In this document: positions 52,067 to 62,271 of the stretch, piece by piece | Position numbering within the stretch: the first letter of the stretch is position 1 | Layout of the letters: each line of letters starts with the position of its first letter | From: Gelatoporia subvermispora B | Lineage: Eukaryota; Basidiomycota; Agaricomycetes; Polyporales; Gelatoporiaceae | NCBI GenBank assembly: GCA_000320605.2 | Contig: KB445793.1 | Span: 152,911-216,910, forward strand | Direction: 5' to 3' | Length of the DNA: 64,000 nt | The notes under the pieces: model-generated | Database searches by the model: none | Seen by the model: the letters and a program-made list of their open reading frames with translations, nothing else | Told to the model about the DNA's origin: nothing | Made by a program: the position numbers and the translations under genes

Positions 52067-53403
52067 ATGATGTCGAGCTACACGCCAGACACGTTTAAGC
52101 CTCTGCTCGGCAAGCTCGTCAAGACTCCCGAATACTTTGGTCCAGATGACTTAAAGCTCGCGCTGGAACACATTTTTACCCCAGACGCCGTCCACCCTGC
52201 TCAGATCGGGTCGTTCCTCACTGCTCTCCACATCGAACGTGTCGAGCGACGGCCGGAGTGCCTTGCAGCGGCAGCAGATGTCCTACGGGCTCGTGCACTC
52301 AAGGCAGCAGTGCAGGATGTCGACATTGACTTCGTGGTGGACATTGTGGGCACTGGCGGAGATGGGCACAACACCTTCAACGTCAGCACGACCGCGGCGG
52401 TCGTCGCTGCTGGTGCGGGGGCGAGGGTAATCAAGGTGAGTCCCAGACACATATCTGAAAAACGTACCCTCAACTCTTGGATAGCATGGCAGCAGAGCAT
52501 CCACCTCGTCCTCAGGGTCTGCGGATCTGCTGCAATCACTAGATTGCCTATTCATCCCACCGACGCCCGGCACACCGATGCCCATCGCCAACGTCCCCTT
52601 CACCTTCATTCTCGCACCACACTACCACCCCGCCCTTGCCATGATCGCACCATACCGCAAAGCGCTGCCGTACGTCTCTTCGAGTTCAACGAGGATCCCG
52701 TCGCGCCCCTGCGAAGTACTGGTCACTGTTGTCCACATACGGGTCCAATCTTGGGCCATCTTGACCCTGATAGACTCTTGTTTATACCAGGATCTGACGT
52801 CGTAGAGAGCATGCCTGGGTCCTGTCAGACGCGTTCCATGACTGACTGACATTTCACAGCCACCGAACGATGTTCAACGTTTTGGGCCCGCTCATCAATC
52901 CCGCCCGACCGCGCGGGATGGTCCTCGGCGTCGCCGAGCGGGAGCTTGGACGTACGTTCGCAGAGTCGCTCAGTCGGGGCGGCGTCGAACGCGCGCTCGT
53001 CGTGTGCGGCGCTGAGGGGCTGGACGAGATCAGTTGCGCGGGCGAGACGCACGCCTGGGAGCTCGTCAACGGCCAGGTCACCGAGAAGACGCTGCACCCC
53101 GAGCAGTTTGGCCTGCGGGTTCACCCGTTGAGCGCCGTGGCGGGGGGCGCGCCAACAGAGAACGCGGAGACGTTCAGACTACTCCTGACATCGGGCGACG
53201 CGATCCCCGAGCGGCTGACACCTCAGCTGCACTTTGTGCTCCTGAACGCCGCGGCGCTACTCGTTGTCGCTGGGCTCGCGAAAGACTTCAAGCAGGGTGT
53301 CGATCTCGCGATGAAGAGTATCACCTCGGGACAGGCATGGAAGGCGCTGGAGATGTTCCGGGATGTTGGGCGCGAGGCTGCTGCGAAGGTATCGCCCTCC
53401 TAA
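52067..53403 (+). CDS. TRP4: Anthranilate phosphoribosyltransferase (tryptophan biosynthesis)
   Basis: It transfers phosphoribose from PRPP to anthranilate in tryptophan synthesis. Exons 52067-52435, 52485-52669 and 52860-53403 join in phase to 365 residues, about the length of fungal Trp4. Motifs: [13 protein letters not shown], the PRPP-binding [42 protein letters not shown] with the conserved HG and [25 protein letters not shown], and after the second intron [20 protein letters not shown]. The C-terminal end includes [36 protein letters not shown] and [16 protein letters not shown]. Intron 2 is 190 nt, long for this genome. Two diverged 3' fragments of this gene lie downstream (54.3-54.75 kb and 58.6-58.9 kb). 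The start is the first of two adjacent ATGs. The gene looks functional. Confidence 0.93.
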
Positions 53404-53869
53404 AAGCGGTGTCTGACCTTGCCTAACTTCAGCGCCTTAGGTGGCGGAGTCGGTTTGACCCTCATTGAATCAACGAAGTTTTGCTATATTTGCCGAGTAA
53501 AGGTTCTGCGTGTATTGAAGTATAGAATTAGGTGTATTCCATTATCTGCGTTGCCGCTCACGTCCGGCCATCTCAGAAACGCCCGTTTGTATCATCCATA
53601 CATGCGATGTATATGCCTTGGTTCAACAGATCATCGCTTCCACACCGGCGCAGACTTTCTCCCCTCATGCGGGGCCCACAGTCTCCTAGTCAAGAGCCCG
53701 TACGTTGCAATGGAAGCTGGCGGCAGCCGATGTGTAAGACGTACGACCGCTGTGTCCTGTTTGGCTCCTCTAAGCTGGTGAAAGTACATGTGTTGAGGGA
53801 TACAGGCCGTGTGAAGCACACACTGTATAGCTTGCGGTGCATATACGCTAAAGCGCCACTCTTCTAACC
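53404..53869. other. trpD 3' flank, related to a copy at 59.1-59.2 kb
   Basis: No gene. The stretch around 53640-53720 (caccggcg, then ctcatgcggggcccac, then gcaatggaagctggcgg) has a diverged partner at about 59140-59220, showing that the duplicated unit included trpD downstream DNA. Confidence 0.5.
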
Positions 53870-58930: not shown

Positions 58931-59831
58931 GCTACTTCACCGAGAATATTTGGACGCCTCGTGAGTACGCGCAGTCCGTAGTGGTTGACACCTAGGCCTA
59001 TGACTTACCTTGCTCCAGTGAGTTTTTCTCGTCCAACGATAGCCTCACCAAAGAAATCAAAGAGCAGGTCTCTGTGCCTTCCATGCCTTTGGAGTATCAC
59101 GAGTATCTCCGGGTCCAATCAATCATTAAAGTGCTTCCTTGACACCGGTGTGGAATGCCCTCCTCACGCGGGCCCCGCATTCTCCGGGCGAGGATGCGGC
59201 CTGCCGCGATGGAAGTTGTAGAAGTACGGCCGCTACTCCCTGGCGTGGCTTTTCTAAACTTATGTGAGTGCATGGAATGACGGATATGGACCATGTGATG
59301 TACATACTGTACAGCATATAGGTGCTCGACTTGTGGATTCGTTTCCCCGACGCGAACAACGTTATGTGGCAGTAGATTATGGTACGATTGACTTCCGCCC
59401 GTGTACGACACTCATTCACTAAACAGAAACTTTGCAACGTGGTGCTCGTGTTCTCGGGGTGGGGATCGATATACTCAAGTATTCGAAGCTGCCAACTCTC
59501 CGGCCGTTCGCATGACCGGCGACACCGATGCAGCAATCCGACCGACTTGCCCTTTCTGTCATCCAATTTTCTTGTGTTAGCAGAGCCATCTGTTTCAAGT
59601 TTGTGTGCGCTGCGGTGGCACGCTCCTGGTGAGCATACAATTGGTAACGACTCACCCCGCCCGAATGAGCCATGTGTGCATAACACTCCTGCTTGTAGTT
59701 TTACCATCCTCGTGCCATTTCAACTCGAAACCCATCCTTTGTTTTGTTGGGTTTTCGATGATGTAATCTATGCTCATGCGCATATAAATCTGCCTATGAC
59801 TTGCGGTTTCGATCCAGGCAGTCACCTTCCC
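58931..59831. other. Duplicated trpD flank and promoter of carboxylesterase E
   Basis: No gene. The left part matches DNA downstream of trpD (53.55-53.72 kb), and the right part matches the promoter of copy D (55.54-55.76 kb), so this is the joint of two duplicated segments. Confidence 0.5.
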
Positions 59832-62271
59832 ATGATGTTCTTGTCTCCATACGCTCTCCTTGCCTTCACCGCGAGCTTCGCATATGCAGCTCCCTCTATT
59901 GTGAATCCTGCAGTCCCTCCTGTAGTTGTCTTAGACAATGCCACGTTCATAGGTAGTACTAACGGGACAGTTAGCAAGTTCCTCGGTATCCCGTTCGCAG
60001 AACCCCCGTGAGTTTCGCCCTCACTTCATGACGGTCCTTATAGCTGATATGGATGGTTTTACAGGACGGGAGATTTGAGATTCCGCCTTCCCGTCCCTGT
60101 GGGGCCCTATAACGGCACCTACAATGTCACTCAATACGGCTTGAGCTGCCCGCAGCAGTCACAGAACTTGTTCTTCACACCCGCACCAATTCCAGAGGGC
60201 GAGGATTGTGAGCCCACGCATCTTGTCTTGGTCGGCATGTGCGCTCACCAAGCTCGCATTAGGCCTGAACCTGAACATCTGGGCTCCTTCAGACATACAG
60301 CCAGGCGCAAACCTTTCTGTCTTTGTGGTGTGTCTTATCATTCATTCACGCACTCATGTCGACCTACGGATCGCCCACAGTGGATATTCGGCGGTGTGTA
60401 TAGTCGTGAAAATAACTGGAACCCTAACCCATACCTCTTCGAGTAGGTGGCTTCCAAGCTGGCTCGAATTCAGCGTGTGTATGCCTTATGATGCGGTGAT
60501 TCGTAACTGAGCGGTCCTTTCGCTAATTAGGGACGATGGCGGAGTGATAGTGCAAAGGAGTATTGAGCTCGGAGAACCCATCGTATATGTTAGTATGAAT
60601 TATCGGTAAGTATATCAGCTTTGACATTCCGGTTGACTACTGTATAACCATATATTCATCGACACAAGAATCTCTGGTGAGAATGACTGAACATCAGTAT
60701 CCTACCATACTCTCACATCGCATTTATGCAGCTTTCGGATTTCTTGCCAGTAAGGAAGTTGAGGAAGCAGAGGTCGGTAATATCGGATTATGGGATCGTG
60801 GGTGTCTGACAACCAAGTCTGGATGATATAACCTATATTAACCCATCGCCTCTCGGCATCAACAGAACGCCAAGCACTGCGATGGGTGCAGGAATACATA
60901 AGCACATTTGGGGGTAACCCTGCGAACGTAACGATGTAAGTTGCCCGTTCGTATTTTTGTCCAGGCTCGTTAAGCCGCATGTACTTACAGAGGGGGAGAG
61001 AGCGCTGGAGCCATATCGGTGGGCTTGCAAATGGTGACCAACGGTGGTAACACCGAAGGGCTCTTCCGTGCCGCCTTCATGTCATCGGGATCTCCGGTGC
61101 CCGTAGGCAATATCACGCATGGACAGAAGTACTACGACGCTCTTGTGAACGATACCGGTTGTTTCGGAACGGCGGATACCCTCGAATGTTTGAGGCAGGT
61201 GCCGTACGAGAAGCTCAAGGCAGCTGTTGACAAGTCCCCAAACCTGTCCTCCACTCAGGTATGCGATTATGTTCTAGATCAATTCGAAGGAGTTGTATCG
61301 ATATATCTGCTTTACAGGGAGTTAATCTACCATGGCTTCCTCGAGCGGACGGGATATTCCTCACTGCGCCACCGCAGCATCTGATGCTCAACGGGAGCGT
61401 AGCAGACATACCATTCATTAGCGGGGTGATTGTGCTCCTGATCCTGACTATCGAGCTAGACAAGGGCTAACGGCATGTACGCAGGATTGCGACGATGAAG
61501 GAACGGCTTTCTCAGCGTTCGCTGCCGTTAGATTGGACATTCAGTAAGGATATAGCACGTACTGAATTTCGAGATAGCTCTGATTCCCACTCACGCTAGG
61601 ACTGACGAGCAGTTCGTTGATTGGATTAACGAAACATACTTCTCGACTACTCCCGCTGGTCGTCTCGACGAACTCTTTACACTCTACCCAGATGACCCCG
61701 CCCAGGGCTCACCTTTCGGCACCGGTAACCGCTATCAAATCACGAAGCAGTATAAGCGCATGTCCGCTCTTCAAGGTGACCTGATCTTCCAAGCACCTCG
61801 CAGGTTCTTGCTAGAGCAGCGGTCGGGAAAACAGAATACGTGGTCCTATTGTGCGTAGTGCTGTCGCATATCGAGATGACGATAACCCACTGATGTCGCA
61901 AATTGTGATTAGTGTTCAAAGGAGAAAAAGATCCTTTTCTACTCGGATTCCTGGGATCGGTGAGTTCTCTTGGCGGTCGTACTGATGTATCCTCGGTTCA
62001 CCTAACATGTATCGCAAAGCGTCACGCTTCCGACGTCCCAACGTATTTCGGGCCCGGCCAAATGACCGATTACCTTGTCAACTTCGTGAACCACCTCAAT
62101 CCGAACGGACCAACGGTTGACCTTTCTTGGCCGAAATACACTAACGCTTCCACGAACCTTTTGACATTCACGGGAGAGTCTGCGCCGTTTCAGCTCAACA
62201 TCACTCAGGATGATTTCCGGGTCGCGGCGATGAATGAAGTGACGGAATTGTCCCTCGAGTATCCTCTTTGA
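59832..62271 (+). CDS. Secreted type-B carboxylesterase/lipase, copy E (complete)
   Basis: Same family and exon layout as D. The first of two adjacent ATGs is taken (MMFLSPYALLAFTASFAYAA, signal peptide); the second gives a start parallel to D. Motifs: NATFIGSTNGTVSKFLGIPF, PPTGDLRFRLPVPVGPYNGT, EDCLNLNIWAPSDIQPGANL, WIFGGGFQAGSNSA with an intact oxyanion hole, and [19 protein letters not shown]. Then an 8-nt exon at 60669-60676, [40 protein letters not shown] with catalytic Ser, [52 protein letters not shown] and FGPGQMTDYLVNFVNHLNPN follow; the end is SLEYPL. All introns join in phase. The gene appears functional. Confidence 0.9.

What the first reader, a model, noticed from the sequence alone, without database searches (positions are those of the whole stretch)
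52067..62271. Alternating array of carboxylesterase genes and trpD 3' fragments
The order is intact trpD, carboxylesterase last-exon fragment C, trpD fragment 2, carboxylesterase D, trpD fragment 3, carboxylesterase E. Flanking DNA of both genes (trpD downstream DNA, carboxylesterase promoter and 3' flank) is duplicated too. This indicates repeated unequal exchange of a unit spanning the trpD-carboxylesterase junction, with trpD pieces carried as passengers and left to decay while the esterases survived. It gives a visible record of how a gene family expands. Homologies were seen directly; the mechanism is inferred.
Basis: partly seen in the sequence, partly recalled or inferred. Interest (0 to 1): 0.75.

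Follow-up and report, generated by a model that had tools for sequence, protein, structure and literature searches.

The report
Esterase array carrying broken trpD copies
In a wood-rotting fungus, a stretch covering the end of a tryptophan-synthesis gene and the whole neighbouring esterase gene was copied in tandem, leaving two apparently working esterases, one esterase stump and two decayed trpD scraps; this is a well-preserved example of an ordinary way in which gene families grow.

Summary
The window comes from Gelatoporia subvermispora B (esterase E is identical to CERSUDRAFT_80903). The locus is three colinear units: trpD 3' part, spacer, esterase promoter, esterase, esterase 3' flank. 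Unit 1 has intact trpD and only the last exon of esterase C. Units 2 and 3 have broken trpD fragments and intact 15-exon esterases D and E. The best explanation is lineage-specific tandem duplication of a trpD-esterase segment. Obba rivulosa shows one protein of this type, on a contig of the same length as the contig bearing its trpD, and D and E together are sister to it (100/99).

Three refinements. (1) The two trpD/esterase junctions differ, and unequal exchange is not demonstrated. (2) The parts do not share one clock: D-E silent divergence is about 1.2; frag2 has 2.5 times fewer private changes than frag3, yet a rooted last-exon tree sets D apart from C and E (raw distances do not). Gene conversion or an extra event would explain this; neither is proven. 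(3) C's exon stayed open and mostly constrained, so its truncation probably came late.

Kind: known (tandem duplication with a partial neighbour gene). Interest is modest.

The parts
52067..53403 (+). Intact trpD (anthranilate phosphoribosyltransferase), exons 52067-52435, 52485-52669, 52860-53403; 365 aa
   Evidence: Open spliced frame; PF00591 E 2e-74 and PF02885; 93% identical to Obba rivulosa TrpD; no other full copy found in the assembly
53404..53853 (+). Spacer S1 downstream of trpD, duplicated as S3
   Evidence: Local alignment to 58806-59331, 0 of 200 shuffles reach it, z=17
53854..54105 (+). Esterase C: last exon only (exon 15), open, with its stop codon; promoter and exons 1-14 missing
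   Evidence: S1 homology runs up to the exon boundary, so about 2.7 kb is missing by comparison with unit 3
54106..54301 (+). Esterase 3' flank of unit 1, homologous to 62277-62457; ends at junction 1
   Evidence: z=13.7, 0 of 300 shuffles; three pieces tested apart, 3, 0 and 6 of 1000 shuffles
54303..54751 (+). trpD fragment 2: last 22 nt of intron 2 plus exon 3 to parent 53268, 10 indel blocks, frame broken
54752..55902 (+). Spacer S2 and promoter of D; S1-like pieces at 55227-55369 and, weakly, 54761-54820; 55541-55889 like the E promoter
   Evidence: no second place found in the assembly for 54752-55640 (the tool warns that this does not prove rarity)
55903..58396 (+). Esterase D, 15 exons including an 8-nt microexon (56809-56816), 562 aa; not found as a near full-length protein in the database
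   Evidence: All 14 introns GT-AG (acceptor of intron 12 then moved so that exon 13 starts at 57726); COesterase E 1e-91; best database hit is E at 76%
58397..58459 (+). Esterase 3' flank of unit 2, homologous to 54109-54171; ends at junction 2
   Evidence: 0 of 1000 shuffles
58451..58805 (+). trpD fragment 3: exon 3 from about parent 52886 to 53216, then from 53393; frame broken
   Evidence: 58451-58551 vs frag2 54340-54440, 0 of 1000 shuffles, but vs trpD itself 29 of 1000; 58559-58798 vs 52986-53216, z=20, 0 of 300
58806..59834 (+). Spacer S3 (homologous to S1 up to 59331) and promoter of E
59835..62271 (+). Esterase E, 15 exons including an 8-nt microexon (60669-60676), 541 aa; identical to CERSUDRAFT_80903
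   Evidence: COesterase E 4e-93
62272..62457 (+). Esterase 3' flank of unit 3

Best explanation
This is a tandem segmental duplication that ignored gene borders. An ancestor had one esterase (X) next to trpD. A segment from trpD intron 2 / exon 3, through the spacer and the whole esterase, to about 60-200 nt past its stop was duplicated until there were three units. Each new unit brought a complete esterase with promoter but only the 3' end of trpD, without its promoter and exons 1-2, so the trpD pieces decayed while D and E were kept by selection. C later lost its promoter and exons 1-14 by a deletion of about 2.7 kb. Frag2 was probably partly rewritten by the intact trpD 1.5 kb away (gene conversion), or stems from a later event. 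Shown: anatomy, colinearity, decay, coding constraint, and sister relation to the one Obba protein listed. Inferred: single ancestral copy next to trpD, order of events, gene conversion, the founding illegitimate join.
For: Three colinear units, most parts significant against shuffles. trpD pieces lack exons 1-2 and carry frame-breaking indels, while one trpD is intact. D-E dN 0.13, dS 1.21. D and E are sisters and together sister to Obba P0002 (both forks 100/99); the Obba orthologues of A and F, the D/E relative and trpD are all listed with a contig of 182,758 bases. C exon: C branch dS 0.70 (bootstrap 0.28-2.74), dN 0.14; dN reached dS in 0.55% of 2000 bootstraps; a neutral exon stays stop-free in 12% and 6% of simulations at distance 0.4 and 0.67, but in 29% and 17% at 0.2 and 0.3.
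Against: Ages disagree: D-E silent 1.21; pair-HMM S1-S3 0.42, trpD-frag3 exon 0.46, trpD-frag2 0.17. Frag2 has 23 private changes and frag3 58 in 215 shared columns (p 0.0001), yet D is set apart in the last-exon tree; pure duplication does not give this. That tree rests on 253 columns and five sequences, and raw last-exon distances are smallest for D-E (dS 0.83, dN 0.13; C-E 1.03, 0.18; C-D 1.13, 0.24). Gene conversion between D and E was tested and not significant (P 0.19). No syntenic DNA from a relative could be read; trpD next to X in the ancestor rests on equal contig lengths.
Confidence: 0.8

Rival explanations
1. The three units arose exactly: repeated unequal homologous exchange of one unit, all parts of a unit the same age.
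For: Units are colinear and similarly oriented; matching parts of D and E lie 3.85-3.88 kb apart throughout; raw last-exon distances are smallest for D-E.
Against: Junctions differ by about 135 nt and about 50 nt; C and E are sisters with D between in the rooted last-exon tree; frag2 and frag3 differ in private changes, 23 vs 58.
Confidence: 0.15
2. The esterases were duplicated early and independently; trpD pieces were pasted between them later by ectopic repair.
For: D-E introns are barely above chance in global alignment (0.593 vs 0.585 shuffled; a pair-HMM still supports homology, log-odds 30, distance 0.76) and dS is 1.21, whereas trpD frag2 is 73% alike overall and 80-87% in blocks.
Against: Each trpD piece is followed in the right order by trpD-downstream spacer and then the esterase promoter; two pastes at matching places would be a coincidence. 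trpD and S1 may be constrained, which would lower their distances.
Confidence: 0.12
3. Assembly artefact (haplotypes or repeats misjoined).
For: None found.
Against: Copies differ by 13-32% with many indels, far more than haplotypes would be expected to (expectation recalled); E, A and F match database proteins that are listed with the same 2,650,408-base contig length (contig C3 here has 2,644,725 bases).
Confidence: 0.02

Closest known systems
Tandem segmental duplication with partial inclusion of a neighbouring gene (partial or chimeric duplicates; Katju 2012, PMC3449122, passages read)
   Same: Duplication breakpoints fall inside a gene, so one gene is copied whole and its neighbour in part; the review says the process shows little respect for gene boundaries.
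   Different: Here the partial neighbour is a broken passenger; no chimeric gene was noticed (none was searched for with transcripts).
AFPIII array of an Antarctic eelpout (named in the same review)
   Same: Tandem array built from repeated units around one gene.
   Different: There a partial copy gained a new function; here the full copies carry on and the partial ones decay.
Fungal type-B carboxylesterases, often annotated as carotenoid ester lipase precursor (PF00135)
   Same: D and E match the family profile; most listed fungal relatives are 53-60% identical.
   Different: Substrate unknown; D has Pro for the first Gly of the WIFGGGF motif (the motif's role is recalled).

Membership tests
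Tandem segmental duplication | Direct, colinear repeats including non-coding flanks | tested here: met
Tandem segmental duplication | Breakpoints that cut a gene, leaving a partial copy | tested here: met
   Joins at about parent 52838 (intron 2) and about 52886 (exon 3)
Unequal homologous exchange between units | Same junction in every repeat | tested here: inconclusive
   Junctions differ; one deletion across junction 2 could reconcile them
Unequal homologous exchange between units | Middle unit resembles the left unit in 3' parts | tested here: not met
   C+E sisters, D outside; AU p 0.032 for C+D, 0.028 for D+E; raw distances put D nearest E, not C
Type-B carboxylesterase (PF00135) | Profile match above the curated cut-off | tested here: met
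   E 313.6 bits, D 308.9 bits, cut-off 27; the C exon alone gives no match
Type-B carboxylesterase (PF00135) | GESAG serine and C-terminal His (recalled motifs) | tested here: met
   Both in D and E by eye
Type-B carboxylesterase (PF00135) | Esterase activity | not testable with these tools
   No assay
Anthranilate phosphoribosyltransferase | PF00591 plus PF02885 over the full length | tested here: met

The most novel reading that the evidence does not exclude
The trpD fragments are not simple fossils: frag2 has been rewritten by, or was until lately part of, a functional trpD copy. In an 86-nt stretch near the start of exon 3 (parent 52900-52985, chosen after looking) it differs from trpD at 9 of 27 third positions but only 1 of 58 first and second positions, and in the left part of the fragment frag3 sides with frag2 against trpD at 9 sites and with trpD against frag2 at none. 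So the array would record a live exchange between an essential gene and its scraps, or a second working trpD that was lost.
Probability: 0.2. Interest if true: 0.45.

Novelty: new member of a known kind. Interest (0 to 1): 0.3.

Why it matters
The locus lets the steps of gene-family growth be read from one sequence: the passenger scraps mark the duplication borders, the surviving genes show selection, and the stump shows later loss. It also warns that naive dating of such passengers can mislead, because parts of one unit give different ages. Practically, esterase D appears to be missing from protein databases.

Tried and rejected
Single clock for all parts: rejected. D-E gene conversion in exon 10 (dS 0.66 against 1.40 elsewhere): permutation P 0.19, and exons 1-9 against 10-15 only z 2.6; not claimed. 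The same scan gave P 0.012 for E-A, one of six pairs, not followed up. C-to-T decay of trpD pieces: C>T plus G>A is 27 against 16 the other way (frag2) and 27 against 19 (frag3), CpG transitions 12 of 118 and 12 of 66 CpG bases; unremarkable. S2 as a repeated element: no second place found, though the tool warns that this does not prove rarity. My first reading that junction 2 lies at about 58571 with the same esterase-side breakpoint as junction 1 was wrong; one search moved it to 58451-58459. The D-flank distances (0.56 and 1.02) therefore mix esterase flank and trpD and are not used. Early splice models of E failed until the 8-nt microexon was found; the provisional D protein used had splice errors. 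Literature: searches listed no paper whose title or shown abstract names this locus (open-licence PMC only; listings, plus passages of PMC3449122 and PMC9330253). The G. subvermispora genome paper was not seen.
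Full report
What is there. The window is G000:C3:152911-216910 of a 37.7-Mb, 52-contig genome. Spliced esterase E (541 aa) and A (553 aa) are identical to Gelatoporia subvermispora B proteins CERSUDRAFT_80903 and CERSUDRAFT_111813, which names the organism. trpD at 52067-53403 is intact (3 exons, 365 aa). In the assembly a trpD protein search gives six matches, all at this locus: the three exons, frag2 (two rows) and frag3.

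The array. Three units follow in the same order and orientation: trpD 3' part, spacer, promoter, esterase, 3' flank. Unit 1: trpD, S1, last exon of C (53854-54105), flank to 54301. Unit 2: frag2 54303-54751, S2, D 55903-58396, flank to about 58459. Unit 3: frag3 from about 58451, S3 to 59331, E promoter, E 59835-62271, flank to 62457. Homology was tested by alignment against shuffled sequence: S1/S3 0 of 200 shuffles; D/E promoters 0 of 300; C/E flank 0 of 300; frag3 58559-58798 against trpD 0 of 300; S2 55227-55369 against S1 0 of 300; C/D flank first 60 nt 0 of 1000; frag3 left end against frag2 0 of 1000, against trpD itself 29 of 1000. Weak or not significant: S1 against all of S2 with loose gap costs (6 of 200), D/E flank (7 of 200; 10 of 300; 77 of 1000 for the 60-nt piece) and the S2 start against S1 (3 of 500).

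The genes. D and E each have 15 exons with all 14 introns GT-AG, including an 8-nt microexon (the acceptor of D intron 12 was later moved by 9 nt). A and F (F at C3:248.8-251.3 kb) share the 15-exon pattern and the microexon. D has 562 aa and no near full-length counterpart among 7998 scored candidates; its best hit is E at 76%. D-E: dN 0.13, dS 1.21, so both have been held by selection.

The scraps. Against trpD, frag2 differs at 60 of 384 aligned bases and frag3 at 71 of 224, with 10 and 5 indel blocks. Frag2 lacks parent 53269 to about 53504 and frag3 lacks 53217-53392. The C exon has no stop or frameshift before its own stop codon. The C branch has dS 0.70 (bootstrap 0.28-2.74) and dN 0.14, with dN at or above dS in 0.55% of 2000 bootstraps. 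Neutral simulations stay stop-free in 29, 17, 12 and 6% at distances 0.2, 0.3, 0.4 and 0.67. So C was probably a constrained gene for most of its life and was cut late; S1 homology runs right up to the exon.

Origin. In a 14-protein tree (four own models and ten listed proteins), D and E are sisters (100/99) and together sister to Obba P0002 (100/99); A pairs with Obba P0060 and F with P0004. All three Obba esterases and Obba TrpD are listed with a contig of 182,758 bases; that this is one contig is inferred from the equal length. Obba shows one protein of the C/D/E type among the 120 listed of 1759 hits, so the expansion is most simply placed after the split. The two are described as closely related species (PMC9330253, passages).

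Junctions. Junction 1 joins esterase flank (about 196 nt after C's stop) to trpD intron 2 at about 52838. Junction 2 joins flank 55-63 nt after D's stop to trpD at about 52886. They may be two founding joins, or one followed by a deletion across it. By eye no long shared sequence lies at the joins, so the first step was probably illegitimate rather than homologous (inference).

Clocks. Pair-HMM distances: trpD-frag2 0.17, trpD-frag3 exon 0.46 and UTR 0.26, S1-S3 0.42, D-E promoter 0.56, D-E introns 0.76, C-E flank 0.45 (constraint on trpD and S1 would lower theirs). In 215 columns shared by trpD, frag2 and frag3, private changes are 10, 23 and 58; 23 against 58 has p 0.0001. At first and second codon positions frag2 differs from trpD at 26 of 256 and frag3 at 43 of 150 (p 4e-6). 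In the last-exon DNA tree (five sequences, 253 columns, A and F outside) C and E are sisters with D apart (97/96; AU p 0.032 and 0.028 for the alternatives). Against this, raw last-exon distances are smallest for D-E (dS 0.83, dN 0.13; C-E 1.03, 0.18; C-D 1.13, 0.24), and the last-exon protein tree does not resolve the three. If the DNA tree holds, the least altered trpD scrap lies next to the most distant esterase. Conversion of frag2 by intact trpD, or a later event, would explain it; neither is proven.

Unexplained. In parent 52900-52985 (a stretch chosen after looking) frag2 differs from trpD at 9 of 27 third and 1 of 58 first and second positions; to the right (52986-53268) 22 of 91 and 22 of 180 (first and second positions left against right, p 0.019). 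In the 97 three-way columns left of 52986 frag3 agrees with frag2 against trpD 9 times and with trpD against frag2 never; in the 215 to the right 10 and 23 (p 0.0002). Frag3 has 40 private differences in the 97 left columns and is poorly aligned there, so this stays a lead.

Comparison and verdict. Duplications that cut a neighbour are well known (PMC3449122, passages read). The locus is a new, unusually legible member of that kind.

Noticed in passing
56809-56816 and 60669-60676; also 36889-36882 (- strand) and L028: An 8-nt microexon, with 13-nt and 28-nt exons nearby, in all four esterases modelled (A, D, E, F); the model is confirmed by identity of E and A with database proteins.
   Followed up: partly
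This hints at an old trpD-esterase linkage across Agaricomycetes; adjacency was not testable, and several of the contigs are megabases long.
   Followed up: partly
55903-58396 and 52067-53403: Neither D nor this trpD appears as a near full-length G. subvermispora protein in the searches, so both may be missing from or wrong in public annotation.
   Followed up: partly
about 39100-40800 (- strand): A second esterase (B) beside intact A that looks broken: two stops inside a 46-codon exon match (C3:192072-192209; read by eye; not modelled). No trpD match was found near it.
   Followed up: no
D residues around WIFPGGF (exons 4-5, 56522-56616): D has Pro where E, A and F have the first Gly of WIFGGGF, near the presumed oxyanion hole (role recalled); D, E and Obba P0002 also share TIGGESAG instead of TIWGESAG of A and F.
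   Followed up: no
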